Source: Stenoxybacter acetivorans DSM 19021
GTDB lineage: Bacteria; Pseudomonadota; Gammaproteobacteria; Burkholderiales; Neisseriaceae
Direction: 5' to 3'
Assembly: GCF_000745895.1 (NCBI RefSeq)
Contig: NZ_JQKE01000025.1
Location: forward strand, 1-37,957
Length of the DNA: 37,957 bases
Numbering within the stretch: position 1 is the first letter of the stretch; each line of letters starts with the position of its first letter. Shown one piece after another: positions 1 to 29,269 of this stretch. The position numbers were made by a program, and so were the translations under genes. Under the pieces are notes generated by a model that made no database searches, was not told the origin of the DNA, and worked only from the letters and a program-made list of their open reading frames with translations.

Positions 1-798
1 GCGACACCGAACACGCCAACTCAGTATTAGCCCCCATATTTAACTTGCAGAAAGTGCAGGACAATATGGCATTGGCGCAGGTGGTCAGCGAGATTGTGTC
101 CACCATTGCCACCACCGCCGCCAATGTTCAAAAAGAAGAAAGCTGGCAGCAACGCGATGAAGCGTTAAAGGCATTGGAAGACACCCTTACGCCAGAGCAA
201 TGGGAAGAATACCGCGGTAAAACCAAAAACGGCTACAAACCGGAATACTTACAGCAGCAACTGGGCAATAGCCACCCCTTGTGGCAAAACTACGCACAGG
301 CAGATCAGTTATACCAAAAAACCGAGCAGCAATACGGCATCGGCAGCCCTTACCAACGCGCTGCCCAAGCATTGGCAGCCTTAGCGGGCGGCATTGCCGG
401 CGGCAACCTCAGCCAAGCGGCAACGGGTGCCGCCATGCCCTATGCCGCCAATCAAATCGGTCAGTATTTTAATGGTCAGGAGCCAACGGCAGCGAACGAA
501 GCGGCAAGAATCTTAGCCCACGCCGCTTTAGGCGCAGCGGCGGCATACCTCAGCGGCGGTGCAGATGCGGCAGTGAGCGGTGCGGCGGGTGCGGCGAGCG
601 GCGAAGTCATGGCAAAAATCGTTCACGAAACCCTGTTTGGAGGCAAACCGAACCAAGATTTAACCGAAACCGAGAAAGACCAAATCCGCGATATAGCGAA
701 CTTAGCGGCTGGCTTGGTTGGCGGCGTAACGGGCGGAGGTGTCGGTGCGGTAACGGGGGCTGTGGCGGGTGATAATGCGGTGGTGAATAATTATCTGA
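1..798 (+). repeat. Direct repeat copy A of exoprotein pretoxin region
   Basis: This stretch is nearly identical to 2571-3352. Homology is already present at the left edge, so the repeat probably extends outside the window. It ends abruptly after the codons for VVNN: copy A continues as YLSQ, copy B as ALSN. The breakpoint at the pretoxin/toxin boundary is where CdiA-type modules are known to be exchanged. Confidence 0.85.
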
Positions 799-1643
799 GC
801 CAGGCACAGCAGGATCAGAGAGATAAAGAAATCGCCGCCTGTCAGAACCTATATTGTAGAGTAGAAGTGCGTGCGAAATGGACTGCCATTGACATAAAGC
901 AAGATAGTAGTTTTGCGGCGGGAGTGATTGCCGGCGTTCCGATAGAGTTGTATGACACAGCTAAAGGTATTATATCGATAGCCACCAGTCCAATTGAAAC
1001 TTATGAGGCACTAAAAGCCTTGTTTAGTAGCGATGATGTACTGAGCAAGATCTCAAATGAGGTAAAACAATCTTATATTGACCGTATTAACCATATGGAA
1101 ATGGAATTCGAGAAAGCAGGAAGCAGCGGTTCATTTAATGCAGGCGTTGAAGGTGGCAAACTGATCACAGATATAGTGGGATTAATTGCCGGTGGTGCGG
1201 GTACTGTGAAAAGTGGTGCTACATTAACAGAAAAAATTGTGGCTAAGGTTACTGGTAAGTCTGGGTCGGTGGGAAAAGGGAAGACAGGAACTATTTTTGA
1301 TTCAATTAAAGAAACTCAGCCTGTGTATCCTGGGTCGGTAATTCCTAAATCGTTTGAAATGACTTTGCCAAATGGACAAAAAGTATGGGTTCATGAGAAC
1401 GCGACAGAACATATAGTTGAATATGCAGCATCTAAAGCTGTTACACATACACCAGAAGCTGTAAGGCTAGCTAGTCAGGTTGAGCTTAAAAGCTTTCAAT
1501 CTGCTGTTAATACGGCGACTAAAAATAAAATTCCTTATAATGAAAGAATTACTGTAGATGGGTGGCAGCTAGAATTTAAACCTCCTCGTTCTAGTGATGA
1601 GTTGCCTACAATTATTCATGCTCGTTATGTGGGAGCTCACTAA
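1..1643 (+). CDS. CdiA/FhaB-type exoprotein, C-terminal part with toxin tip (5' end outside window)
   Basis: The frame is open from the window edge with no start codon; the TTG at 45 is internal, because the residues before it (DTEHANSVLAPIF) align with the same protein stretch near base 2575. This is therefore the end of a large two-partner-secretion exoprotein used in contact-dependent competition. Seen in order: a conserved pretoxin stretch (KVQDNMALAQVVSEIV), an Ala/Gly-rich segment (about bases 350-630), and a PT-VENN-like segment with NAVVNN (about 770-790), where CdiA proteins carry VENN. After this the sequence is unique to this copy: a Gly-rich linker, then about 110 residues containing WVHENATEH and a terminal HARYVGAH, in the position of a secreted CT toxin. 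I do not recognise the toxin family; the conserved His residues would suit a nuclease, but that is inference. A small immunity-like gene starts one base after the stop codon. Confidence 0.8.
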   Translation, partial: DTEHANSVLAPIFNLQKVQDNMALAQVVSEIVSTIATTAANVQKEESWQQRDEALKALEDTLTPEQWEEYRGKTKNGYKPEYLQQQLGNSHPLWQNYAQADQLYQKTEQQYGIGSPYQRAAQALAALAGGIAGGNLSQAATGAAMPYAANQIGQYFNGQEPTAANEAARILAHAALGAAAAYLSGGADAAVSGAAGAASGEVMAKIVHETLFGGKPNQDLTETEKDQIRDIANLAAGLVGGVTGGGVGAVTGAVAGDNAVVNNYLSQAQQDQRDKEIAACQNLYCRVEVRAKWTAIDIKQDSSFAAGVIAGVPIELYDTAKGIISIATSPIETYEALKALFSSDDVLSKISNEVKQSYIDRINHMEMEFEKAGSSGSFNAGVEGGKLITDIVGLIAGGAGTVKSGATLTEKIVAKVTGKSGSVGKGKTGTIFDSIKETQPVYPGSVIPKSFEMTLPNGQKVWVHENATEHIVEYAASKAVTHTPEAVRLASQVELKSFQSAVNTATKNKIPYNERITVDGWQLEFKPPRSSDELPTIIHARYVGAH

Positions 1644-1644
1644 A

Positions 1645-2028
1645 ATGGATATAAGTATTAGTAATCCAATAAATATCTCAATGGATCTCCTAGAAATTGA
1701 TAAGCATCTTCCGTCAATAAAATTTGACATTAAAATTAATGTCAAAAAATTTGGTTACTCATTGGTTGTAAATACACAAATATGGATTGAATGTAGTGTA
1801 TTTGATTTATTTATAGAAGCTATGCGTAAAGGTGAAATTGCTAGGCTTATGGATATAAATAGACTTTTTGAATTGACTATAGACGTAGCACAAAATCGAT
1901 TACAATGGTTCTGTGCTAAAGAAAACCTGGATGCTTGTATAACATTAGCGAAAGGTGAAGAAATGCTTACAAATGAATCAAGAGATATTATATACAGCAC
2001 ATTCAATGATTATCCACGATGGTGGTAA
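1645..2028 (+). CDS. Putative immunity protein for the upstream toxin tip
   Basis: 127 residues, starting at the ATG one base after the toxin stop codon (an upstream in-frame start at 1594 would overlap the toxin gene). It is AT-rich, rich in Ile, Leu and Asp, with no signal peptide or membrane segment, so it is probably cytoplasmic. Position directly 3' of a CdiA-type toxin tip is the classic place for the cognate immunity gene that protects the producer and its kin. I do not recognise a named Imm family; function rests on position, size and composition. It ends in DYPRWW, and the fossil toxin tail begins three bases downstream. Confidence 0.6.
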   Translation: MDISISNPINISMDLLEIDKHLPSIKFDIKINVKKFGYSLVVNTQIWIECSVFDLFIEAMRKGEIARLMDINRLFELTIDVAQNRLQWFCAKENLDACITLAKGEEMLTNESRDIIYSTFNDYPRWW

Positions 2029-2031
2029 CAT

Positions 2032-2066
2032 CTGGGAAGTCAGTAATAATCAGTAACGGACAGATG
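2032..2066 (+). pseudogene. Fossil 3' tail of an Imm8-associated toxin
   Basis: These 35 bases match 4334-4368 (the last codons of the second toxin) at 31 of 35 positions. In the matching frame they read SGKSVIISNGQM, against TGKSVTISNGHM in the intact tail. The tail is fused directly to haemagglutinin sequence that begins DVTVGRD. It looks like the scar of a recombination that removed an earlier toxin module and joined a new cassette at its end. Confidence 0.65.
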
Positions 2067-2570
2067 TTACCGTTGGCAGAGATTTAACCCTCATCAGCCA
2101 ACAAGACACCGACCAATACCAAAGCCGCCAAAACGACCAAAGTGTTTACGGCGAAGTCATGGTTTACGGCTACGGCGGCGGCAGCTTCAATGCCCAAGCA
2201 GGTCATCAAAGCATTGACAGCGATTACGCTTCGGTAAACGAACAAACCGGCATCTACGCCGGCGATGGCGGCTTTAATATTAAAGTAAACGGCACAACCG
2301 ATTTGCAAGGTGCAGTAATCGCTTCAACAGCAAACAAAGATAAAAACAGCCTGATTACCGGCGAACTGAAATACAGCGACTTAAACAATCATGCCGAATA
2401 TCAAGCTGTGGGCGGCAGTGCCGGCATCGGCAGCGCACCGCCGCCAAGCGCAAGTTACCAAAGCGGTGATGCCGACAGCACCACGAAAGCGGCAATCAGC
2501 GAAGCCACTATCATCATCGACGGCAAACAAGCCACCGATGCGCAATTGGCAGGCTTAAGCCGCGATACCG

Positions 2571-3352
2571 AACACGCCAATCAGGTATTAAAACCCATAT
2601 TTGACTTGCAGAAAGTGCAGGACAATATGGCACTGGCGCAGGTGGTCAGCGAGATTGTGTCCACCATTGCCACCACCACCGCCAATGTTCAAAAAGAAGA
2701 GAGTTGGCAGCAACGCGATGAAGCGTTAAAAGCATTGGAAGACACCCGCCCGAGCAATGGGAAGAATATCGCGGAAAGACTAACAACGGCTACAACCCGG
2801 AATATTTACAGCAGCAACTGGGCAATAACCACCCCTTGTGGCAAAACTACGAACAGGCAGACAAGCTGTACCAACAAACCGAACAGCAATACGGCACCGG
2901 CAGCCCTTACCAACGCGCCGCCCAAGCCTTGGCAGCCCTGGCGGGCGGTATTGCCGGTGGCAACCTCAGCCAAGCGGCAACGGGTGCCGCCATGCCCTAT
3001 GCTGCCAACCAAATCGGTCAGTATTTTAATGGTCAAGAGCCAACGGCAGCGAACGAAGCGGCAAGAATCTTAGCCCACGCCGCCTTGGGCGCAGCGGCGG
3101 CATACCTCAGCGGCGGTGCAGATGCGGCAGTGAGCGGCGCGGTGGGTGCGGCGAGCGGCGAAGTCATGGCAAAAATCGTTCACGAAACCCTGTTTGGCGA
3201 CAGACCGAACCAAAAATTAACTGAAGCTGAGAAAGACCAAATCCGCGATATAGCGAACTTAGCGGCTGGTTTGGTTGGTGGCGTAACGGGCGGAGGTGCC
3301 GGTGCGGTAACGGGGGCTGTGGCGAGTGATAATGCGGTGGTGAATAATGCGC
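2571..3352 (+). repeat. Direct repeat copy B of exoprotein pretoxin region
   Basis: Second copy of the sequence at 1-798, with scattered substitutions and the four-base deletion at about 2746. It supplies the homology through which the two toxin tips could be exchanged. Confidence 0.85.
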
Positions 3353-4383
3353 TGAGTAACGCTTCAGGAGAAAACAAACTTAACGATAAGGAAAAACAGC
3401 TCAATAAAAAATTAAAAGCAGCAGGGGTTCAAAGCGCTGATGATTATCAGCAACGATATGATGAATGTAAAACTGATGCTTGCCGCCAACAAGTAAATGC
3501 TGATTATCGTTATGCAGCAGAGTTAGCCGACAGAATTACGTTGGCTATGTATAACAGCGGTCAATTAACGGCAGACGAATTCAAAATACTGGTTACTTCG
3601 TATGCAAATAAAATGATGCAGGGAGCAGGAGACAGTGAACAAGCATCAAATACAGGCGGAGAAATCTATACGCAAAACGGTGCGACATGGTCGCCAGCCG
3701 GTGTTATAAACAATCCTTATTTTGATGAGATAAATACTCGTGTATTGTTGTCTGATCTAAAATCTGAGGGAGCAAGTGATGAACAAATTGCCAATCGGCT
3801 GCAACAAAATCAAATTGCCCGTGATTATTTATTTTCTTTGCCTCCTCAGGAACAGGTTGCGTTGTTGTTGGCAGAAGGATTTGCGATACAGACCGTTCTG
3901 AATGTGGTTACTAAGGTGAAGGGTGGTGCAGTACTGACGGATAAAGCAGCAGCTGGTAAGGGTGATAAAACAACGAGTGGTGCAGAGAATGTCGCGACTT
4001 ATCCGAAACTAAAAGATGAACTGATGCAGCAGAACCTGAACAATATTGCGAAGCAAGATTCGAGATTGGCAGCAGCAGCTAAAGGCAGTGGCACGACAAA
4101 CCCCAATTTTTCTGTCGGAATGGGAACTGCGGATGAAGCAAATAGGTTAGGTAAAATTTGGGTGGGAGATGGGGCTAGATTGGTTGATAACCAAAAAAAC
4201 TGCCCTGGTTGTTGGATTAGTGCCGATGGTTCTCGTTTGTATAGACCACCAACAGAAAAAGCGAATACTCCAACTCATTTTAATCCTACAGGGATACAGG
4301 CTAATTTCCAAATATTAGAAGTTAATCCTACTACTGGGAAATCAGTAACAATCAGCAACGGACATATGAGCATTAATAAATGA
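2836..4383 (+). CDS. Toxin-bearing half of the orphan cassette (pretoxin plus CT toxin)
   Basis: This is the intact 3' part of the frameshifted cassette; the frame is open back to the scar at about 2750, and the TTG at 2836 is only the first possible start. Seen in order: Ala/Gly-rich pretoxin (GGIAGGNLSQAATGAAMP), PT-VENN-like segment (LTEAEKDQIRDIANLAAGL) ending DNAVVNN, a linker with two Cys (YDECKTDACRQQ), then a C-terminal domain of about 110 residues with VGDGARL, NCPGCWISADGSRLYRPP and a final TGKSVTISNGH. I have the impression of this WISxDGxRxYRPP tip as a recurring polymorphic-toxin end but cannot name its activity. The Imm8-type gene overlaps its stop codon (ATGA), which suggests a matched pair. 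Without fusion to an upstream secretion domain it is probably silent. Confidence 0.65.
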   Translation: MWQNYEQADKLYQQTEQQYGTGSPYQRAAQALAALAGGIAGGNLSQAATGAAMPYAANQIGQYFNGQEPTAANEAARILAHAALGAAAAYLSGGADAAVSGAVGAASGEVMAKIVHETLFGDRPNQKLTEAEKDQIRDIANLAAGLVGGVTGGGAGAVTGAVASDNAVVNNALSNASGENKLNDKEKQLNKKLKAAGVQSADDYQQRYDECKTDACRQQVNADYRYAAELADRITLAMYNSGQLTADEFKILVTSYANKMMQGAGDSEQASNTGGEIYTQNGATWSPAGVINNPYFDEINTRVLLSDLKSEGASDEQIANRLQQNQIARDYLFSLPPQEQVALLLAEGFAIQTVLNVVTKVKGGAVLTDKAAAGKGDKTTSGAENVATYPKLKDELMQQNLNNIAKQDSRLAAAAKGSGTTNPNFSVGMGTADEANRLGKIWVGDGARLVDNQKNCPGCWISADGSRLYRPPTEKANTPTHFNPTGIQANFQILEVNPTTGKSVTISNGHMSINK

Positions 4384-4733
4384 AAGCAATATTAAAAGGT
4401 ATGTGGGTTTACTCTGCTAATTTCAGCTTAGAGAATTATAAGCCTGAAGAGAAAAATTGTTTTACCTTGTTGGTTAATTTAGACATAGGATTTATTGATG
4501 AAACAGGGGCAGATTCTTTTAATTTACACATCTGCACTCCTGAATGGCTCTGTAAAAATCAGTGGTTACCAGAGCTAATGCGGCACACGTTACTGGTACG
4601 TAAATATGATTTGAATGAAATCACAAAAACCATTACTGATTATATTGATCAGTGTGAGGGCAATGACTGGATGGAAATAGCCCAAAAACTCTCCCGTGTT
4701 TTTGCTTGGGAGTTTGAAGACTATCAGCCTTGA
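4380..4733 (+). CDS. Imm8-family immunity protein
   Basis: 117 residues; the start ATG overlaps the toxin stop (ATGA), so the two are translationally coupled. The pattern DSFNLHICTPEWLCKN, then a pair of Arg/His near LMRHTLLV, a central Asp-rich helix and the closing W-E-F-E-D-Y fits the Imm8 family of immunity proteins found beside polymorphic toxins. It would bind and neutralise the toxin tip encoded just upstream. No signal peptide, so it acts in the cytoplasm. Family assignment is from pattern memory; pairing is from the overlap. Confidence 0.75.
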   Translation: MKAILKGMWVYSANFSLENYKPEEKNCFTLLVNLDIGFIDETGADSFNLHICTPEWLCKNQWLPELMRHTLLVRKYDLNEITKTITDYIDQCEGNDWMEIAQKLSRVFAWEFEDYQP

Positions 4734-4753
4734 AAATTAGGAGTTAAATTAAA

Positions 4754-5218
4754 ATGATTTTTGGTGATCCTTATGATTTTGCACTTCAGTTTCAAATTGT
4801 CGAAAATTGGAATAATGAAAATAATTTCTGGAAGAATGGCATGTTTTATTTTTATTTAAATGGGGAAGCTATTTTTAATAAAGTGTGTGTATCTGAATTA
4901 AGAAGTGTATATGCTACCTATTTTGATATTAACTTAATACAAGTACCTAAGAATGATATAAATATATCTGCCCTTGAGTTATTTCAAAATGCTGATAATC
5001 ATTTTTTTAAAACTGGTGAGGATTTAATTTCTGGTATATTGGATTTAACATGTACAACAATGAGGGATAATGGTTATGATATTTATTTTTTAGGAACAAG
5101 CTCTGGTGATCGATTTGTATGGAGTTCTGATTCAGGAAAAACTATAAATGAGATATTTTTTAAAAAAGAAATTTTTTTTAATACAATTAGTAAAATGCCA
5201 GCAGATTTTATAAGGTAA
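4754..5218 (+). CDS. Imm42-family immunity protein
   Basis: 154 residues, beginning MIFGDPYDFALQF, followed by FWKNGMFYFYLNGE; this opening is typical of Imm42 immunity proteins. A ribosome site (TAGGAG) ends about 10 bases before the ATG. It is strongly AT-rich compared with the housekeeping genes. No toxin gene lies between it and the Imm8-type gene, so it is an orphan immunity gene, probably left from a lost module or kept against neighbours' toxins. Confidence 0.75.
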   Translation: MIFGDPYDFALQFQIVENWNNENNFWKNGMFYFYLNGEAIFNKVCVSELRSVYATYFDINLIQVPKNDINISALELFQNADNHFFKTGEDLISGILDLTCTTMRDNGYDIYFLGTSSGDRFVWSSDSGKTINEIFFKKEIFFNTISKMPADFIR

Positions 5219-5228
5219 ATTGGTAAAA

Positions 5229-5822
5229 ATGATTATTGGAGATTATGAAAAATTTGGCTTTTTAATTGAATATGATGCTAATGCTTCAGTTGATCCAACA
5301 TTTATTGAAGGCTTTTTTGTAATATATATCAATGGTAAAATGTACCCAGAAAAATTTAACCATTATGTAACACTCAATAGAGATGTTGAATATTTATTAA
5401 ATAACTCATCTTTTATAGAAATGCCTATTAATAAAAGATTATTTGAAATAGATAAAAAACAGGCAATTGTTGAGATGTTTATGTTGTCAAATATTCTTAT
5501 TTTGGATGAAGATAATCGTGAAGACTCAGATAACTTAAAAGAGGATTATACATACAATGCTATATCATCTCATTTTACAGATGGAGAATATGGTGAAATA
5601 TTTTCTGTTAGTAATGGAGAAATGATAAGAATTTTAGGGGGGAAGCTTCTTTCTGATTATGATGAAGAAAAATGTTGCTATATTAATTATAGACTATCTG
5701 ATGAAATTGATGAAATTTTTATACTAAAGTATGAACTAGAATATTATATTTCCAAACTTAAAAAATATTATACAAAAATTAAACAGATTCATAAAAAACG
5801 TTTTGATTATACATATAGTTAA
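5229..5822 (+). CDS. Second Imm42-like immunity protein
   Basis: 197 residues from the ATG at 5229, ten bases after the previous stop; a TTG at 5220 is a weaker alternative. It starts MIIGDYEKFGFLIEYD and continues with EGFFVIYINGKMYP, matching the layout of the preceding Imm42-type protein (FGDPYDFALQF ... MFYFYLNGE), so the two look like diverged relatives. The C-terminus is Lys/Tyr-rich. AT-rich like its neighbour and also without a toxin partner. The 224 bases that follow (to 6046) are very AT-rich with no gene visible. Confidence 0.65.
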   Translation: MIIGDYEKFGFLIEYDANASVDPTFIEGFFVIYINGKMYPEKFNHYVTLNRDVEYLLNNSSFIEMPINKRLFEIDKKQAIVEMFMLSNILILDEDNREDSDNLKEDYTYNAISSHFTDGEYGEIFSVSNGEMIRILGGKLLSDYDEEKCCYINYRLSDEIDEIFILKYELEYYISKLKKYYTKIKQIHKKRFDYTYS

Positions 5823-21747: not shown

Positions 21748-21760
21748 GCAGAATTTGTGC

Positions 21761-21788
21761 ATTATATATTCTCTTTAAAGATTGTCAA
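21761..21788 (-). promoter_or_regulatory. Near-consensus promoter of tRNA-Leu
   Basis: On the minus strand TTGACA (21783-21788), 16-base spacer, TATAAT (21761-21766): both hexamers match the sigma-70 consensus exactly. Transcription would start near 21754 and read leftward through the inverted repeat into the tRNA. The -35 ends seven bases before the rnr ATG on the opposite strand. Confidence 0.75.
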
Positions 21789-21795
21789 TTATCCC

Positions 21796-24090
21796 ATGAA
21801 AAAAAACACCCCTTCACCCGACATTTCACTTCGCCGCCAAGATCCTTATCTGGCTCGGGAGCAGCAACGCTATGACAACCCTTTGCCCAGCCGCGAATGG
21901 GTGATGGCGGTGCTGGAACGGCAGGGTGTGCCGATTAAAATGGCTGATTTAATTGCCTTATTTGACATCAACGGCGATGAAATTCCTTTTTTTGAACGCC
22001 GCCTCAACGCCATGACGCGCGATGGACAAGTGTTGATTAATCGGCGCGGCGCGGTGTGTGCGGCAGAAAAACTGGAATTGGTGAAATGCCGCATTGAAGT
22101 GCATAAAGACGATTTTGGCTTTGCCGTGCCGCTCAATTCGGCAGACGGCAGCGATTTGGTGCTGTATGCGCGGCAAATGCGCGGGGTAATGAACGGCGAC
22201 ATCGTTATTGTGCGCCCGATTGGTACAGATCGGCGCGGACGGCGAGAAGGTCAAGTGTTGGATATTTTGGAACGTGCCAATAAAACCGTGGTCGGACGGC
22301 TGTTGGTGGAACACGGCATTGCCATGTTAGTACCTGAAGACAAACGGCTCATCAACAGCATTATTTTGGAGCAGGATTCTGTTACAGGGCTGGATATCGG
22401 ACAAGTAGTGGTGGCGCAAATTGATTCCTATCCGGAAGGGACGCGCCCCGCCGTCGGGCGCGTTATTGAAGTGCTGGGTACATACGCTGACAGCGGCATG
22501 GAAATCGAAATTGCGGTACGCAAACACCATTTACCGCACCTGTTCAGCACCGCATGTGAAGTAGCGGCGGCAAAAATTCCCGATTCAGTACGCCCCGCAG
22601 ACACAAAAGGACGGGTGGATTTACGCGCACTGCCGCTGCTCACCATTGATGGTGAAACCGCACGGGATTTTGACGATGCGGTGTACGCAGAAAAACAAGG
22701 CCGCAATCATCGCCTGATTGTCGCCATTGCCGACGTGAGCCATTATGTACGACCCGATGACGCCATTGATATTGACGCACAAGAACGCGCCACCAGCGTT
22801 TATTTTCCGCGCCGCGTGATTCCCATGCTGCCTGAAAATCTTTCCAACGGCATTTGTTCACTCAATCCCGACGTAGATCGCCTGTGCATGGTGTGCGACA
22901 TGGTGATAACCCATGCCGGCAACGTAAAATCATATCAATTCTATCCCGCCGTGATGCGTTCACACGCCCGTTTAACCTACAACCAAACATGGCAATGGAT
23001 CAGCGAAGGCAGCAACCACCCGCTCAAACCGCAAATCGATCAGCTGTATGCCCTGTATAAAATTTTGCTGAGAAAACGCGCTCAGCGCGGGGCAATGGAA
23101 TTTGATACCGTCGAAACCGAAATGCTGTTTAACGAACAGGGTAAAATTGAGCGCGTGATTCCGGTGGAACGCAATGACGCACATCGGCTCATCGAAGAAT
23201 GTATGCTTGCCGCCAACGTTTGCGCCGCTGAATTTTTACTGCAACACAAGCACACAGCCCTTTTCCGCAATCATTTGGGACCCACGCCGGAAAAACTCAC
23301 CGCTTTGCGCGAACAGCTTGCCCTGCTCGGTTTGCAGTTAAACGGCGGCGACAAACCCACACCCAAAGACTATGCCGAACTGGCGGAAAAATTTGAAAAC
23401 CGACCCGATAAAAATGTTTTGCAAATCATGCTGCTGCGCTCCATGCAGCAAGCGGTGTATGAACCTGAAAATCACGGTCATTTCGGCTTGGCTTACCCCG
23501 CATACGCACACTTTACTTCACCCATTCGCCGCTACCCCGATTTAACCGTACACCGCGCCATTAAAGCCGTATTGCAGCAAAGCACCTATCAGCCCGACAC
23601 CGCATGGCAAGCACTCGGCACGCATTGCTCACTGGCAGAACGCCGTGCCGATGATGCCAGCCGTGATGTCAGCAATTGGCTGAAAACCTATTACATGCGC
23701 GACAAAGTGGGTGAAATATTCAGCGGCCGCATCTCCGGTATGGCGAACTTTGGTTTATTTGTTACGCTGGACGATATTTACATCGACGGCATGATTCACA
23801 TCAGCGATTTGGGCGAAGATTATTTCAATTACCGCCCCGATATGATGGCGATTATCGGCGAGCGCAGCGGCGTTCGCTTCAGTGTCGGCGACCGCGTGGC
23901 AGTCAAAGTAACCCGTGCCGATTTGGACACCAGCAAAATTGATTTGATGCTGATTAGCGGCGGCGAGAAAAAACGGCGCAGCACAACGGCAAAAACAGAA
24001 AATACGAAAAAACCCGATAATCCGACGGCAGACACAAAAAAACGCAGCAATCGAGTGAAAACAGCAAAAAGCAATCGGCAGAAACGCTGA
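21796..24090 (+). CDS. rnr: Ribonuclease R
   Basis: 764 residues from ATG at 21796; an upstream ATG at 21757 would run through the tRNA promoter and add 13 residues not seen in neisserial RNase R. Processive 3'-5' exoribonuclease for structured RNA. Seen: N-terminal winged-helix region (DPYLAREQQRYDNPLPSREWV), cold-shock domains, RNB catalytic motif with D285, D291, D293 and D294 (TARDFDDAVY), AYAHFTSPIRRYPDL, S1 domain at about 639-720 (GRISGMANFGLFV) and a Lys-rich tail (about 725-764). No good ribosome site is visible before the start. Confidence 0.95.
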   Translation: MKKNTPSPDISLRRQDPYLAREQQRYDNPLPSREWVMAVLERQGVPIKMADLIALFDINGDEIPFFERRLNAMTRDGQVLINRRGAVCAAEKLELVKCRIEVHKDDFGFAVPLNSADGSDLVLYARQMRGVMNGDIVIVRPIGTDRRGRREGQVLDILERANKTVVGRLLVEHGIAMLVPEDKRLINSIILEQDSVTGLDIGQVVVAQIDSYPEGTRPAVGRVIEVLGTYADSGMEIEIAVRKHHLPHLFSTACEVAAAKIPDSVRPADTKGRVDLRALPLLTIDGETARDFDDAVYAEKQGRNHRLIVAIADVSHYVRPDDAIDIDAQERATSVYFPRRVIPMLPENLSNGICSLNPDVDRLCMVCDMVITHAGNVKSYQFYPAVMRSHARLTYNQTWQWISEGSNHPLKPQIDQLYALYKILLRKRAQRGAMEFDTVETEMLFNEQGKIERVIPVERNDAHRLIEECMLAANVCAAEFLLQHKHTALFRNHLGPTPEKLTALREQLALLGLQLNGGDKPTPKDYAELAEKFENRPDKNVLQIMLLRSMQQAVYEPENHGHFGLAYPAYAHFTSPIRRYPDLTVHRAIKAVLQQSTYQPDTAWQALGTHCSLAERRADDASRDVSNWLKTYYMRDKVGEIFSGRISGMANFGLFVTLDDIYIDGMIHISDLGEDYFNYRPDMMAIIGERSGVRFSVGDRVAVKVTRADLDTSKIDLMLISGGEKKRRSTTAKTENTKKPDNPTADTKKRSNRVKTAKSNRQKR

Positions 24091-24446
24091 AGTATTGTCG
24101 GCAAACTATTTTTGCTTTTTACCAAACAATTCGCAATGCCGTGCGGCACAGCCATTCAAAAACAGATTGCCGCCTGTTTTTGCTTGTTACACTGACCGCC
24201 GATTGAATCAGGCTGCCTGAAAACGGTTTCAGGCAGCCTGTTGTTTGGTACTCGTTTTTTTTATTTGACCAACCTAAATAATCACTTTCATGACTTTTCG
24301 GCATTGTTCAATTGGGAACATTACACTATATCAACGCTTTGAGCATCAGCCTTACCACGCCGATAACTTGTGTAGCAGCAGGTTCTGTTTTTATGCTGGT
24401 TTATGCTGCGTTGTTAATTTTTCATTGATAAAGGACAGCATAAGTA
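24091..24446. other. 356-base intergenic region; probable left junction of the foreign operon
   Basis: Holds an inverted repeat CAAAAACAG/CTGTTTTTG (24157-24165, 24174-24182), a DUS hairpin, then sequence with no recognised gene. A possible promoter for the downstream operon is TTGTTC (24304-24309), 17 bases, TATATC (24327-24332), with a small dyad TGTTC/GAACA over the -35. A 9-base direct repeat TTTATGCTG occurs at 24390 and 24400. The change from DUS-bearing to DUS-free sequence falls after 24240. Confidence 0.4.
24209..24240. terminator. Inverted DUS hairpin after rnr
   Basis: CAGGCTGCCTGAAA (24209-24222) and TTTCAGGCAGCCTG (24227-24240) form a perfect 14-bp stem with a 4-base loop; both arms hold an exact DUS (plus 24210-24221, minus 24228-24239). 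A weak T-rich stretch (TTGTTTGG) follows. Likely terminator of rnr and the last native feature before the foreign operon. Confidence 0.75.
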
Positions 24447-25241
24447 ATGGAAAATTCCAGTTATTATAAAGGCGTGATTCTGGATATCGACGGCACGTTA
24501 TTATTGCATGGTAAAGCTTTACCCGGCGCAGGTGAAGCAACTGCTGCTTTACGCCGGGCAGGCTATCAACTGCGTTTTGTCAGTAATACGACCAGCCGCA
24601 GCGAGGCGCAACTGGCTCAGGTGCTCCTTTTACAGGGTATCGATGCCAGCGAAGCTGAGATCCAGACATCAGTTTCTGCCTGCCTCTGCTTTCTGCAGTC
24701 GCATTTTAGCGATAAAAAAGGGTTCATTGCTGTGCCGGAAGCACTGCAGACACGTTTCAGTCAACTGGAACAGTGCGGCGAGCAGCCCGACTATGTGGTG
24801 CTTGGGGATCTTGACGAAGGGTTTAATTACGCCATTCTGAACCGGATTTTCAATTTTATCCGCAACGGTGCACAGTTGATTGTTTTTCATAAAAATAATT
24901 GGTACTTCCGTGACGGAAAAACCTGGCTCGACAGCGGCGCCTTTACCCGTGCACTCGAGTTGGCTGGTAACACCCAAGCTGTTGTGGTGGGGAAACCTTC
25001 TCCGGTGATGTTTCAAAGTGCTATCCAGTGCATGGGGTTGCCAAAAGATCAGGTGTTGGTCGTTGGTGATGACGTTACTACCGACGTGGACGGTGCGCGC
25101 AATGCAGGTCTGCCTTTTTTACTGGTGGGATCGGGAAAATTTAAGCCAGCCGATTTGACCACACACAACATTCCTCAGAACCACTTTATCTCTACTATCA
25201 TCGGGCTGCCGGAATGGTTGCAATATAGGGTAACTTACTGA
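24447..25241 (+). CDS. HAD-superfamily phosphatase (class IIA, NagD-like)
   Basis: 264 residues. Seen: motif I DIDGTL with nucleophile D13 and D15, motif II SNTTS at 46-50, motif III Lys183 in GKPSP, motif IV GDDVTTDVDGA at 207-217; the cap lies between II and III as in class IIA HADs (NagD, LHPP, PGP type). It should remove phosphate from a small molecule. It overlaps the ATP-grasp gene by one base (TGATG), so the two are coupled. Base and codon use (more CAG, CTG, GAT) and lack of DUS differ from the neighbours and look enterobacterial. Substrate unknown; a ribosome-site-like AAAGGA precedes the start. Confidence 0.82.
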   Translation: MENSSYYKGVILDIDGTLLLHGKALPGAGEATAALRRAGYQLRFVSNTTSRSEAQLAQVLLLQGIDASEAEIQTSVSACLCFLQSHFSDKKGFIAVPEALQTRFSQLEQCGEQPDYVVLGDLDEGFNYAILNRIFNFIRNGAQLIVFHKNNWYFRDGKTWLDSGAFTRALELAGNTQAVVVGKPSPVMFQSAIQCMGLPKDQVLVVGDDVTTDVDGARNAGLPFLLVGSGKFKPADLTTHNIPQNHFISTIIGLPEWLQYRVTY

Positions 25242-26488
25242 TGAAACTACTTAATATTGAAGTCACCTCACGCGGCGACGTTTTTCACAGTCGTTATGAT
25301 ATCTTTCGCCAGCAAGGTGCGGATATTTATTACCTGACTGCCAGCAATGATGCCACGCCTTATGCCGGATTTGCCGGTAAACGTGTAGCCATATCCCAGA
25401 CGATAGAGGCAATAATGAGCGAAGCGAGAGCCTGGCATCAGCAAGAGCAATTTGATGCGATCATCACTACCGATGAGGCTTCCGTGGTTGCAACGGCCCT
25501 GATCGCTCAAGCGTTGGGGCTTCCGGCAACCAGCGTTGAGGCGGCTAAAAACAGTCGCAATAAATACTTGATGCGGCTGGCACATCAACAAGGCGGGGCG
25601 CCACACCCTCCTTTCCACCTTTGCTGCTCGCTTGAGCAAGCTTTACAGGCGGCCAAAACGATAGGCTATCCGGTCATTATCAAACCGACATTAGGAGGGA
25701 ACGCAGAACACGTTTATCTGATTCGTAATGAAGAGGTGATGCGTCAACAGTTTCCGATGGTGTGGGAAGCCAATCTCCATTACTCCTATGGGCAACATGA
25801 GGCTAAAGGGATCAATCTGGAACCTAACGCGCTGCTGGTTGAAGGCTTTCTTGCCGGTTCTGAGCACTGTGTCGAAGCTTGGGTGCGCGATGGTGTTATT
25901 TGTATCGGTTCGATTGCCGATCGTATTTCTACCGAGCTGGAAGTGTTCGACAACGATCTTTACCGAACGCCCAGCATGTTATCGGTCGCCGATCTTGAAA
26001 AATTACGCCACGCGCTGGAAGCGGGTGTCCGTGCGCAGGGCATTGATTACGGCGTTGTCCATGCGGAGTTTCGTTTTCACCAGGGTGAAGCTTATATCCT
26101 TGAAATTGCAGCACGCATCGGTGGCGGAAGCCTGTATAAAATGGCTCGCCTGAGCTATGACTACTGTCCGGTTACAACAGCTTATCGCGTGGCCACTCAG
26201 CAAAAGCCAGACGCAAAGTCGCTGGAAAAAAACGGTCGGGTAGCGGTTGGTCTGACGATGCTGTGTCAGCAGGGAAAAATCAGCCACATTTCCGTGCCGG
26301 AAACAGTGAAGACCCACCCCGCAGTCTTTAACCTGGGGATCCTCGCTCGTGAAGGTGATTTTCACTATCGGCCGCCCGCCGGAAACGACATATTTGGTTA
26401 CATCGGCGTGACGGGCACTTCACAGGAAGCAGCCATTGCTCTGGCTTCCGACCTTTTTGCACAAATCGATATACGCTTCGCGGATTGA
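25241..26488 (+). CDS. ATP-grasp family ligase
   Basis: 415 residues. Seen: an N-terminal pre-ATP-grasp domain (about 1-100), KNSRNKYLMRLAHQQG at 103-118, nucleotide-binding Lys148 in PVIIKPTLGGNAEHV, LLVEGFLAGSEHCVEAWV at 198-215, metal-binding E276 in VVHAEFRF and E288 in EIAARIGGG, then a C-terminal domain. This layout is that of carboxylate-amine ligases such as L-amino acid ligases, PurK/PurT and carboxylases; there is no biotin or carbamoyl module. It would activate a carboxylate as acyl phosphate and join it to an amine. Flanked by a phosphatase and an exporter, it may make a peptide-like small molecule; that is inference. Confidence 0.82.
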   Translation: MKLLNIEVTSRGDVFHSRYDIFRQQGADIYYLTASNDATPYAGFAGKRVAISQTIEAIMSEARAWHQQEQFDAIITTDEASVVATALIAQALGLPATSVEAAKNSRNKYLMRLAHQQGGAPHPPFHLCCSLEQALQAAKTIGYPVIIKPTLGGNAEHVYLIRNEEVMRQQFPMVWEANLHYSYGQHEAKGINLEPNALLVEGFLAGSEHCVEAWVRDGVICIGSIADRISTELEVFDNDLYRTPSMLSVADLEKLRHALEAGVRAQGIDYGVVHAEFRFHQGEAYILEIAARIGGGSLYKMARLSYDYCPVTTAYRVATQQKPDAKSLEKNGRVAVGLTMLCQQGKISHISVPETVKTHPAVFNLGILAREGDFHYRPPAGNDIFGYIGVTGTSQEAAIALASDLFAQIDIRFAD

Positions 26489-26514
26489 GAGATAAACAGG
26501 GACAAGGAGATGTT

Positions 26515-27450
26515 ATGAGCGATTCCCGTAAGCTGGGTGCTTTTCTGGTATTGGCATTTTTAATTATGGCTAATGCGAACGCCGTTTTTTCGGGCTGGCT
26601 ATTGCAGTCGGTTCCTCCCTTTACATTGCTTTTTTGGGGCTTTTTGATCACAACCTTGTTCTTTTTTGTACGGCTTAGTGTGTCGCAAGGCGTCGCGGCG
26701 TTAAAAATCCCGCGTGCTTCGTTGATGGGATTGATCACGCTGAATCTGGCAAGCGGCATCAGCTGGATTGGCTATTACTGTGCGCTGAAATTTATTGAGC
26801 CGGCGATTGTCAGTGCACTAATGGGCTGCATAGGACCGTTATTTATCCTGATGGTCGGATTTATATCACAACGCCGGATTTCGATTAATCAGGTAATCAC
26901 CTCGGCGGGAATTATCGCGGGCACGGCAGTGCTTTCATGGGCATCCATCGCCGATCGTTCTGCGGTGCAAAACGTTGCGGTAAACCATGTACTATTGGGG
27001 CTGGGCGCGGCTTTTATCGGCGGTTTTGGTCAGGTTCTGACCACTCTTTCCACTAAAAAATTAGCCAACCAAAACTGGAGTGCGAGCCAGATTATGGCGC
27101 ACCGTTTCTATTTGCTTACCGCAGTGGCGGCTGTTGTAGCGTTAAACAGCACCGGGTTGCTGCTTAATTCGCCTGCCGGCATGGTGTCGGTAGGCACGGT
27201 TTCTGTCCTGGGGATTCTGGTGCCGCTCTGGCTGTTGCAAAAAGGCATTATTATCTCTTCGCCTTTTACCGTTTCAGTGCTTTTATCGCTCGGACCATTA
27301 ATGACGCTGCTGTTTCAGGGTTTCGACTCACGGTTGCTGTGGTCAAATATGTCGGTAGTGGGTTGCGGCATTATCGTGCTGTCAACGCTGAATAATTTCG
27401 CCTTTAGTCAGAAAGCGCCCCAGATCAGCCGAACCAACAGCCAAGGATAA
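26515..27450 (+). CDS. EamA/DMT-family transporter
   Basis: 311 residues from ATG 26515, chosen because AAGGAG (26504-26509) lies five bases upstream; a TTG at 26485 overlaps the ATP-grasp stop and is less likely. About ten hydrophobic segments in two homologous halves (for example LGAFLVLAFLIMANANAVF, ILVPLWLLQKGIIISSPF), typical of the RhaT/EamA drug-metabolite exporters. Located third in the operon, it probably exports the product of the two enzymes upstream. Foreign base use, no DUS. Confidence 0.85.
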   Translation: MSDSRKLGAFLVLAFLIMANANAVFSGWLLQSVPPFTLLFWGFLITTLFFFVRLSVSQGVAALKIPRASLMGLITLNLASGISWIGYYCALKFIEPAIVSALMGCIGPLFILMVGFISQRRISINQVITSAGIIAGTAVLSWASIADRSAVQNVAVNHVLLGLGAAFIGGFGQVLTTLSTKKLANQNWSASQIMAHRFYLLTAVAAVVALNSTGLLLNSPAGMVSVGTVSVLGILVPLWLLQKGIIISSPFTVSVLLSLGPLMTLLFQGFDSRLLWSNMSVVGCGIIVLSTLNNFAFSQKAPQISRTNSQG

Positions 27451-27453
27451 GCC

Positions 27454-27579
27454 ATGCCTGATACACAAAGTTGCGCCGTGGAAATTGTGCAGATAACGGA
27501 TATGCATCTCGGCGCGAACAAAAATAGCTTACTGAAAAATGTAAACAACCCTGCTAATTCTTACAAAAAGGCTGCTTGA
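27454..27579 (+). pseudogene. Truncated metallophosphoesterase (calcineurin-like, CpdA-type) stub
   Basis: ATG three bases after the exporter stop; 41 codons then TGA. The first 21 residues contain VEIVQITDMHLGA, the N-terminal metal-binding motif D-x-H of Icc/CpdA-type phosphoesterases; the remainder (KNVNNPANSYKKAA) does not continue the fold. The fourth operon gene has been cut off, and the last codons contain an 11/12 DUS-like sequence (AGGCTGCTTGAA), marking the right junction with host DNA. Confidence 0.7.
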
Positions 27580-27667: not shown

Positions 27668-29269
27668 ATGATTATCCGTCTATATTTACCCTGCCGATTC
27701 AACCGCGCCATGCCGTTTTCTTCCCTGCCCAATCCAACAAAAAGTGAGCGTATCCGCCCGAATACACCCTCAATGCTGTATCGCGCCCACCAAATTTTAT
27801 TGGATGAGCATCAAGATCTTTCCGGCGTTTATTTGCTGGACGATGCCCGCGAAGCCTTTGCGGCACGGGTGGCGCTGATTGATGCGGCGGAACACAGTTT
27901 AGACGTGCAATACTATATTTGGCGCAACGATACTTCCGGACAATTGCTGTTGAGTGAACTGGCGGCAGCGGCGCGGCGCGGTGTGCGGGTACGCTTGTTG
28001 TTGGACGACAACAACACTGTGGGCATGGACAATATTTTAACGGTCATGAACCGTGAAGCCAATGTCCATATCCGCCTGTTTAACCCTTTTAAAAATCGCC
28101 GCTGGCGTGCTTTGGGTTATCTCACCGACTTTTCCCGTCTCAATCGGCGCATGCACAATAAATCGCTCACTGCCGACAACCAAGTCAGCATTGTCGGCGG
28201 ACGCAATATCGGTGATGAATATTTCGACATCGGCAGCGGCACTTTATTTGTGGATTTGGATATTCTGGCCATAGGAAAAGTGGTGGACACCATTTCCGCT
28301 GATTTTGATCGTTATTGGAACAGCGCGGCGGCAGTGGATTTCAGCAGCATTGTTTCGCCGAAATTCGACTTGAAGCAAGCCGCTGCGCCGATTTTCAGCC
28401 GCCGTCATTTCAATCAAATCCGTGCCAAAAGTTATGCCATGACCTTGTCGCGTGAAGATTTTTTGAAAAAGCTGCTTTCAGGCAGCCTGCCATATCAATG
28501 GGCAACTGTGCATTTAGTCAGCGACAGCCCCAATAAAGCCACACCATCGCGCTCCTCGCCGAAATTACCGCGTTTTTCTCCCTTGGATTTTGCGCAAGAA
28601 TGGAAGCAAAAACGTGAGCAAAAACAAGCTGATCAGGAAGAAAGTATTTTTCAGCATTTGGCACATACTTTGCGCCGTCCGCTCGAAGCCGTATTATTGG
28701 TTACGCCGTACTTTGTTCCCACGGCTGCCGGTGTGGCGGCATTGTGTCATTTGCGCCAATTGGGCGTTGAAATCAGCGTATTAACCAATTCTCTGTCCGC
28801 CACCGACGTTCCCGCCGTACATTCCGGCTATGCCCGCTACCGCAAAGCTTTATTGCAGGGCGGCATTGCTTTATATGAACTGAAAAACCAACATTTAATC
28901 AAAGGACGGCGTGATCGCGGCGTGGTGGGCAGTTCTTCATCCAGTCTCCACGCCAAAACCTTTACCGTGGACAATGAACGCTTGTTTGTCGGTTCTTTGA
29001 ATCTTGATCCGCGTTCAGCCAGCCTCAACACCGAAATGGGCTTGGTGATTGAATTGCCCGTATTAACTCAAAACGTGGATGAAACCATTAAAAAGACCCT
29101 GCCCGAACAGACTTATCAGGTGCAATTAAACGAAAATCAGCAATTGCAATGGCTGAGCGAAGACAGCAGCGGCGAGATGATTATCCAATATAAAGAACCG
29201 CAAACCACATGGCGGCGCAGATTGTGGGTAAAAATCTTGTCGTACTTACCGATAGAACGCCTGCTGTAA
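27668..29269 (+). CDS. clsC: Cardiolipin synthase C-like phospholipase D protein
   Basis: 533 residues from ATG 27668; a second ATG at 27710 (residue 15) is as likely, since neither has a clear ribosome site. Phospholipase D fold enzyme making cardiolipin at the inner membrane. Seen: LDVQYYIWRNDTSGQLLL, first HKD motif H163-x-K165-x4-D170 followed by IVGGRNIGDEYFD, and second HKD motif LHAKTFTVDNERLFVGSLNLDPRS. These are diagnostic of the ClsC/YmdC branch. No signal peptide or lipobox is seen at the N-terminus, although many relatives have one, so the 5' end may have been altered next to the foreign operon. A minus-strand exact DUS lies at 28477-28488. Confidence 0.85.
   Translation: MIIRLYLPCRFNRAMPFSSLPNPTKSERIRPNTPSMLYRAHQILLDEHQDLSGVYLLDDAREAFAARVALIDAAEHSLDVQYYIWRNDTSGQLLLSELAAAARRGVRVRLLLDDNNTVGMDNILTVMNREANVHIRLFNPFKNRRWRALGYLTDFSRLNRRMHNKSLTADNQVSIVGGRNIGDEYFDIGSGTLFVDLDILAIGKVVDTISADFDRYWNSAAAVDFSSIVSPKFDLKQAAAPIFSRRHFNQIRAKSYAMTLSREDFLKKLLSGSLPYQWATVHLVSDSPNKATPSRSSPKLPRFSPLDFAQEWKQKREQKQADQEESIFQHLAHTLRRPLEAVLLVTPYFVPTAAGVAALCHLRQLGVEISVLTNSLSATDVPAVHSGYARYRKALLQGGIALYELKNQHLIKGRRDRGVVGSSSSSLHAKTFTVDNERLFVGSLNLDPRSASLNTEMGLVIELPVLTQNVDETIKKTLPEQTYQVQLNENQQLQWLSEDSSGEMIIQYKEPQTTWRRRLWVKILSYLPIERLL
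28477..28488 (-). repeat. DNA uptake sequence inside clsC
   Basis: Exact DUS on the minus strand (TTCAGGCAGCCT on plus), within codons for SGSLP, between the two HKD motifs. Confidence 0.8.

What the first reader, a model, noticed from the sequence alone, without database searches (positions are those of the whole stretch)
24447..27579. Foreign four-gene operon: HAD phosphatase, ATP-grasp ligase, EamA exporter, metallophosphoesterase stub
Overlapping or closely spaced genes, complete catalytic motifs in the first two, no DUS over 3 kb in a genome that has one about every 2.3 kb elsewhere, and E. coli-like codon use. The set suggests ligation of a carboxylate to an amine, dephosphorylation of the product or a phosphorylated precursor, and export: a minimal small-molecule pathway, perhaps a phosphorylated dipeptide-like antimetabolite kept harmless until exported. 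I do not know this combination as a named system. Motifs are seen; pathway is inference.
Basis: partly seen in the sequence, partly recalled or inferred. Interest (0 to 1): 0.75.

Follow-up and report, generated by a model that had tools for sequence, protein, structure and literature searches.

The report
Rare foreign ligase, phosphatase, exporter trio
A relative of Neisseria carries a piece of DNA from another bacterium with three intact genes (a phosphatase, an enzyme that joins an acid to an amine, and an exporter) that probably make and export a small peptide-like compound; the same trio turned up in only two other, distantly related bacteria, and its product is unknown.

Summary
The genes are real, at the stated coordinates, and foreign by codon use. 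But this is not an intact four-gene operon. It is a fragment of a five-gene unit, TauE–HAD–ATP-grasp–EamA–metallophosphoesterase, intact in Mixta theicola. The phosphoesterase is cut after about 30 codons, against the terminal repeat of a multi-copy insertion sequence (27541-27565). HAD, ATP-grasp and EamA are intact. Pelistega europaea has just those three; a second genome of the Mixta genus has a decayed copy. The ligase profile matched 1 of 101 relatives and 1 of 369, 2 of 392, 1 of 268, 1 of 394 and 1 of 378 genomes in wider, overlapping draws, each hit being one of these four genomes. The ATP-grasp is of the L-amino-acid-ligase kind; its nearest relatives found here lie in hydrazine-type clusters. 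Best reading: a minimal dephosphorylate, ligate, export pathway for a small amide. Antimetabolite function is unproven. Parts have precedents: phaseolotoxin (HAD plus L-amino-acid ligase) and mangotoxin (ligase-like genes plus EamA). New variant of a known kind, moderate interest.

The parts
24294..24428 (+). Remnant of a TauE/SafE-type membrane protein gene (C-terminal end, with a gap of 23 residues against Mixta), left edge of the foreign segment
   Evidence: matches residues 172-237 of the 238-aa Mixta theicola TauE upstream of the same operon
24447..25241 (+). HAD-IIA phosphatase, 264 aa; HAD motifs complete by eye (DIDGT, SNT, GKPSP, GDD)
   Evidence: structure model pLDDT 83 (three of five models good, two near 36); top fold match 3epr Z 26.9, rmsd 3.1, 254 aligned, others tied
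25241..26488 (+). ATP-grasp ligase of the L-amino-acid-ligase type, 415 aa; start codon overlaps the HAD stop codon by 1 nt
   Evidence: 65% identical to Mixta, 64% to Pelistega
26515..27450 (+). EamA/DMT-type transporter, 311 aa, putative exporter
   Evidence: 74% identical to Mixta, 53% to Pelistega
27454..27579 (+). Truncated CpdA-like metallophosphoesterase gene; homology to the 264-aa Mixta protein ends near 27546, the rest reads through an IS end into host DNA
27541..27565 (+). Terminal repeat of a multi-copy insertion sequence, right edge of the foreign segment
   Evidence: 51 places in the own genome at up to 3 mismatches, this one included; control pattern 0; flanks of fuller copies read by eye as a transposase C-terminus

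Best explanation
The stretch is a horizontally acquired fragment (about 24294 to 27543) of an operon TauE–HAD–ATP-grasp–EamA–phosphoesterase of the kind found in the enterobacterium Mixta. Three genes survive whole and form a compact pathway. The HAD-IIA enzyme removes phosphate from a phosphorylated small molecule (inferred). The ATP-grasp enzyme activates a carboxylate as an acyl phosphate with ATP and joins it to an amine, giving a dipeptide-like amide (class shown by homology, substrates unknown). The EamA protein exports the product (inferred). In the parent operon the phosphoesterase would cleave a phosphodiester or nucleotide-linked precursor before the HAD step, and TauE would move a small anion (both inferred). 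Neither is needed for the part that persists, since Pelistega has the same three-gene core.
For: Same gene order with 52-74% protein identity in Mixta theicola and Pelistega europaea. Remnants of the two outer genes at both edges. Codon use outside the range of 16 host ORFs. Ligase not found at E<=1e-40 in the other 100 of 101 relatives. Ligase family: Pfam ATP-grasp_4 + LAL_C2; best solved relative BL00235, 6.1e-24 with the three-row profile and 8.5e-36 with a six-row profile that includes the plasmid relatives. In an unrooted tree of 10 ligases the three separate from the other seven with support 99; the nearest ones are Pantoea, Klebsiella and Deinococcus proteins in biosynthetic-looking clusters. 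Precedents, passages read: phaseolotoxin cluster with HAD hydrolase phtP and L-amino-acid ligase phtU; mangotoxin mbo operon with D-Ala-D-Ala-ligase-like mboC, biotin-carboxylase-like mboD and EamA protein mboF.
Against: No substrate or product is known; HAD-IIA enzymes have varied substrates. Only three intact copies were found, so conservation of order rests on few genomes. The segment is broken at both ends, and the second copy in the Mixta genus is decayed, so loss happens and function in this host is not shown. The ligase tree joins Mixta with Pelistega (support 72), not with the window, so the donor need not be close to Mixta, although HAD, EamA and the edge remnants point that way. No enzyme that makes an unusual building block adjoins.
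Confidence: 0.55

Rival explanations
1. A neutral passenger: a fragment taken up by transformation or moved by an insertion sequence, not expressed usefully, on its way to decay.
For: Both edges are cut inside genes; one edge is an IS end; a second genome of the Mixta genus shows decay of the same operon.
Against: The TauE remnant carries a 23-residue gap, while HAD, ligase and EamA have no stop and no large gap against Mixta and Pelistega. Pelistega keeps just these three genes.
Confidence: 0.2
2. A detoxification module: the ligase couples a toxic amino or carboxylic compound to an amino acid, HAD removes phosphate from a related toxic phosphate, and EamA pumps the harmless conjugate out.
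For: A compact cassette without enzymes that make a precursor, in scattered hosts. EamA proteins are said to carry amino acids and other metabolites out of the cell (passage of PMC3355146).
Against: Nearest ligase relatives sit in biosynthetic-looking hydrazine-type clusters. No hit of the three proteins in the defence library PADLOC, which is not made for detoxification.
Confidence: 0.15
3. A salvage locus for phosphodiesters: phosphoesterase and HAD degrade a phosphorylated compound, the transporter and ligase act on the released part.
For: A HAD gene and a phosphoesterase gene stand together beside ABC transporter genes in two Rhizobium plasmids. The Mixta phosphoesterase is about 35% identical to annotated CpdA proteins.
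Against: Those HADs are only 27-29% identical to the window HAD; the phosphoesterase is truncated here and unmatched in Pelistega; no uptake system adjoins the trio in the window.
Confidence: 0.1

Closest known systems
L-amino-acid ligases (BL00235, BacD, PSPPH_4299/PhtU)
   Same: ATP-grasp_4 and LAL_C2 domains; profile match to BL00235 at 6.1e-24 or 8.5e-36
   Different: Far in sequence from the solved ones; substrates unknown; its own subfamily of three sequences with blocks such as EHCVEAWV and FDNDLYRTP that the plasmid relatives lack. PhtU itself was not compared
Phaseolotoxin (pht) cluster of Pseudomonas syringae
   Same: Lists a HAD hydrolase (phtP), an L-amino-acid ligase (phtU) and two dCTP-deaminase-like genes; Mixta also has two such genes upstream of its operon
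   Different: 23 genes with amidinotransferase and adenylylsulfate kinase; the window has no DCD genes; orthology of HAD and ligase to phtP and phtU could not be tested
Mangotoxin mbo operon
   Same: Ligase-like genes mboC and mboD and an EamA protein mboF (passages; that mboC and mboD are ATP-grasp proteins is my reading)
   Different: Other enzymes present, such as an amidinotransferase; no HAD named in the passages; sequences not compared here
Hydrazinoacetate-type clusters on Pantoea and Deinococcus plasmids, and a Klebsiella plasmid
   Same: Closest ligase relatives outside the trio, 40-44% identity
   Different: In Pantoea and Deinococcus the ligase lies with lysine N-oxygenase, cupin, MetRS-like and FAD-oxidase genes (Pfam only for Pantoea); none adjoins the trio. 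The Klebsiella record starts just before the MFS gene, so its left part was not seen

Membership tests
L-amino-acid ligase (ATP-grasp) | ATP-grasp domain with the LAL C-terminal domain | tested here: met
   PF13535 4.5e-17 and PF18603 2.6e-10, both above cut-off
L-amino-acid ligase (ATP-grasp) | Closest solved relatives are L-amino-acid ligases, with motif blocks aligned | tested here: met
   3vot BL00235 6.1e-24 and BacD 5.7e-14 with three rows; 8.5e-36 and 1.1e-20 with six rows, alignments shown. Which residues are catalytic is recalled knowledge of the fold
L-amino-acid ligase (ATP-grasp) | Makes dipeptides from free amino acids | not testable with these tools
   needs an enzyme assay; the structure model of the ligase was too poor to use (pLDDT 51.9)
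HAD-IIA phosphatase | HAD-IIA profile and fold | tested here: met
   TIGR01460 121.4 bits against cut-off 100.15; 3epr Z 26.9, rmsd 3.1, 254 aligned; HDHD2 3hlt Z 26.5, rmsd 2.6, 247 aligned
TIGR01458 family (nearest NCBIfam equivalog) | Score above the curated cut-off | tested here: not met
   165.7 bits against 175.95
CpdA-type phosphoesterase (27454-27579) | Full-length catalytic domain | tested here: not met
   41 aa against 264 aa in Mixta; homology ends after about 30 residues
Phaseolotoxin cluster | HAD hydrolase and L-amino-acid ligase in one cluster | tested here: inconclusive
   both gene kinds present; orthology to phtP and phtU untested, no pht sequence was at hand
Phaseolotoxin cluster | Two dCTP-deaminase-like genes in the cluster | tested here: not met
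   window has none by tblastn with the Mixta proteins (best E 0.23); Mixta has two
Hydrazinoacetate cluster | Lysine N-oxygenase, cupin/MetRS-like protein and FAD oxidase beside the ligase | tested here: not met
   the trio lies between rnr and a PLD-family gene and no such gene lies between; the rest of the genome was not searched for them

The most novel reading that the evidence does not exclude
The trio is the exchangeable core of an undescribed family of phosphorus-handling, peptide-like antimetabolite pathways related in logic to phaseolotoxin: a nucleotide-linked or phosphorylated precursor (two dCTP-deaminase-like proteins, a phosphodiesterase and a phosphoesterase in the Mixta parent) is trimmed by the HAD enzyme, joined to an amino acid by the ATP-grasp ligase and exported by EamA.
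Probability: 0.08. Interest if true: 0.75.

Novelty: new variant of a known kind. Interest (0 to 1): 0.4.

Why it matters
If right, three genes suffice to make and export an amide product from common metabolites, a smaller unit than the phaseolotoxin and mangotoxin sets, and the unit moves between distant Proteobacteria. It gives a short, testable pathway and a marker for finding fuller parent clusters.

Tried and rejected
Rejected: a complete four-gene operon (both outer genes broken). Rejected as main evidence of foreignness: GC and DUS absence. Composite transposon: only one IS end was found, none near 24290 (best 9 of 25 mismatches). Phage or plasmid carriage: no relative in viral contigs (two short peptide patterns only); on plasmids 262 of 262 records were under 60% identity and the best-ranked one 43.6% (40 rows seen). 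E. coli: no DNA match. Empty site in relatives: PLD-family homologues in 14 of 41 genomes; rnr did not appear in the flanks of about 1.5 kb held for them, so the ancestral site could not be read; no genome of the same genus is listed. Structure of the ligase: model too poor, not searched. PADLOC: no hit for 3 of 3 proteins at E<=0.001. HAD profile at E<=1e-20 in relatives: 2 of 43, the own genome and one distant match. Phosphoesterase relatives on Serratia and Cedecea plasmids lie in transfer regions; 20 of 80 records were listed. DCD-gene loci: of nine fetched (L070-L078), none holds a match to the ligase or EamA at E<=1e-3 and two hold a HAD at 27-29%; the Paenibacillus one has a single DCD gene, and the Embleya one was not annotated and its ORFs were only listed. 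Priestia and Yersinia plasmids pair an ATP-grasp gene with a DMT transporter, but these ligases are only 21-23% identical: an analogy. A Rhizobium locus with the best plasmid HAD match had no annotation. TauE: no plasmid match. Print: (four of five terms) found 0 papers; (three of five terms) found 17, 15 listed, none naming the trio in title or abstract start. Paper passages, not whole papers, were read.

Limits: genome draws overlap; several searches scored only the best 4 to 6 candidates per genome, and the genome-contig scan used six exact peptide patterns from one sequence, so distant copies can be missed. The Mixta phosphodiesterase fragment matches its family below the cut-off (19.7 against 23 bits) and is broken by eye, so the Mixta cluster upstream is not complete.
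Full report
What is there. Between rnr (21757-24090; name by eye) and a PLD-family gene (27668-29269) lie three intact genes on the + strand: HAD-IIA phosphatase 24447-25241, ATP-grasp ligase 25241-26488, EamA transporter 26515-27450, and a 41-aa phosphoesterase stub 27454-27579. Spacing is tight: 1-nt overlap, 26 nt, 3 nt. The genome is 2.61 Mb in 143 contigs. The window's DUS is of the type called simDUS (motif recalled; passages of PMC3630211, tie simDUS to Simonsiella muelleri), so a Simonsiella-like Neisseriaceae host is likely; the species is not known to me.

Is it foreign? Yes. Codon use of the three genes lies outside the range of 16 host ORFs of the window (mean log-likelihood -1.17 to -1.31 against -0.92 to -1.15; HAD only just outside), and the five Mixta operon genes score alike under the same host table (-1.16 to -1.27). 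The three genes nevertheless still fit the host table slightly better than a Mixta table, less so than any host ORF, which suggests partial adaptation or a different donor. GC equals the host's. The absence of DUS is weak evidence, chance 0.06-0.11. The ligase profile (E<=1e-40) matched 1 of 101 relatives, the own genome.

Edges. The 356 nt between rnr and HAD hold a remnant of a TauE/SafE-type gene, 24294-24428, matching residues 172-237 of the Mixta protein with a 23-residue gap. At the right edge homology to the 264-aa Mixta phosphoesterase stops near 27546, where 27541-27565 is a terminal repeat found at 51 places in the genome with up to 3 mismatches (control 0). Of 14 stretches fetched around copies, nine (L056-L062, L064, L065) share 278-355 bases before the repeat in the rows shown; the translation looks by eye like the C-terminus of an integrase-type transposase, and no family search was run on it. 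Others share less or, as in L068, form an inverted pair without such a body. No second IS end was found to the left. So the segment is a fragment of TauE–HAD–ligase–EamA–phosphoesterase.

Relatives. A scan of genome contigs gave two loci. Mixta theicola (L009): TauE, HAD, ligase, EamA, phosphoesterase in one row. Pelistega europaea (L010): HAD, ligase, EamA, then a LysE-type gene; no match to the Mixta phosphoesterase in its genome. Identities to the window are HAD 56/52, ligase 65/64, EamA 74/53 percent. In the Mixta genus 2 of 8 genomes hold the HAD at E<=1e-40; in the second (G599) the HAD is whole, but TauE is frame-broken, the ligase is cut after about 136 residues, and the last 20 residues of the phosphoesterase follow directly. 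The ligase profile gave 1 of 369 (class), 2 of 392 (Mixta family), 1 of 268 (Pelistega family), 1 of 394 (Mixta order) and 1 of 378 (phylum) genomes, all being these four; the draws overlap. No copy in viral contigs or, as DNA, in E. coli genomes.

What the proteins are. The ligase carries ATP-grasp_4 and LAL_C2; best solved relatives are the L-amino-acid ligase BL00235 and alanine-anticapsin ligase BacD. In an unrooted tree of 10 ligases the window, Mixta and Pelistega proteins separate from the rest (support 99); within them Mixta and Pelistega pair weakly (72), against a window–Mixta pair; the nearest others are Pantoea, Klebsiella and Deinococcus proteins of 40-43% identity. In Pantoea and Deinococcus these sit beside lysine N-oxygenase, cupin, MetRS-like and FAD-oxidase genes, the set described for hydrazinoacetic acid (passages of PMC10445470). 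The HAD model (pLDDT 83) matches HAD-IIA phosphatases, best rows tied near Z 27, and profiles of HDHD2 and LHPP, but falls short of the TIGR01458 cut-off. The EamA profile found no solved relative at E<=0.001. The phosphoesterase of Mixta is closest to Rv0805 and CpdA types.

How it most likely works. Shown: gene content, order, foreignness, truncation, ligase class. Inferred: HAD frees a substrate from its phosphate, the ligase joins a carboxylate to an amine through an acyl phosphate, EamA exports the amide. That just these three genes persist in two unrelated hosts, while TauE and the phosphoesterase are broken or missing, suggests that they are the working core. Against: few copies, and decay in one.

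Compared with the known. Phaseolotoxin's cluster lists a HAD hydrolase (phtP), an L-amino-acid ligase (phtU, which makes alanyl-homoarginine) and two dCTP-deaminase-like genes (passages of PMC3927611 and PMC11278893). Mixta has two such DCD genes about 0.8 kb upstream of TauE, followed by a weakly matching, broken phosphodiesterase fragment. Mangotoxin's mbo operon has D-Ala-D-Ala-ligase-like and biotin-carboxylase-like genes and an EamA protein (passages of PMC3355146). Phosphonoalamides show two ATP-grasp ligases making peptides in one pathway (passages of PMC11867202). The window trio thus works like a reduced ligase-based peptide pathway, but membership in any named cluster is not shown. 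DCD gene pairs occur in other clusters without the trio, so the likeness to phaseolotoxin is a lead, not a test.

Verdict. A real, rare and apparently mobile gene trio, cut out of a larger operon, with a plausible but unproven small-amide pathway.

Noticed in passing
window 27541-27565; 51 places in G000: Terminal repeat of a multi-copy insertion sequence; 22 of the 51 places listed lie within 350 bases of a contig start, so the element probably broke the assembly.
   Followed up: partly
window 45-5822: Two ORFs with a PT-VENN pre-toxin domain followed by two Imm42 immunity genes; the first 8.8 kb of the window have no 10-mer DUS.
   Followed up: no
L011 4565-12120, L012 3655-10140, L013 884-4226: Plasmid clusters of Pantoea ananatis and Deinococcus ficus with hydrazinoacetate-type genes and a ligase near the window's; a Klebsiella variicola plasmid has the MFS, ligase and binding-protein end of the same order as Pantoea.
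   Followed up: partly
L009 6562-7675; L070-L074, L076-L078: Pairs of dCTP-deaminase-like genes recur in loci of Streptomyces, Nonomuraea, Nocardiopsis, Embleya, Rhizobium and Mixta; in the seven annotated plasmid ones a phosphoesterase or methyltransferase gene is near.
   Followed up: partly
L009 802-4451: PALP-type enzyme, UbiD-like decarboxylase and a free-standing B3/4 domain protein in a row in Mixta theicola, perhaps an amino acid analogue pathway with its own editing protein.
   Followed up: no
L021 6001-8242, L022 4710-6891: Other plasmid clusters that pair an ATP-grasp gene with a DMT/EamA transporter (Priestia, Yersinia frederiksenii).
   Followed up: partly
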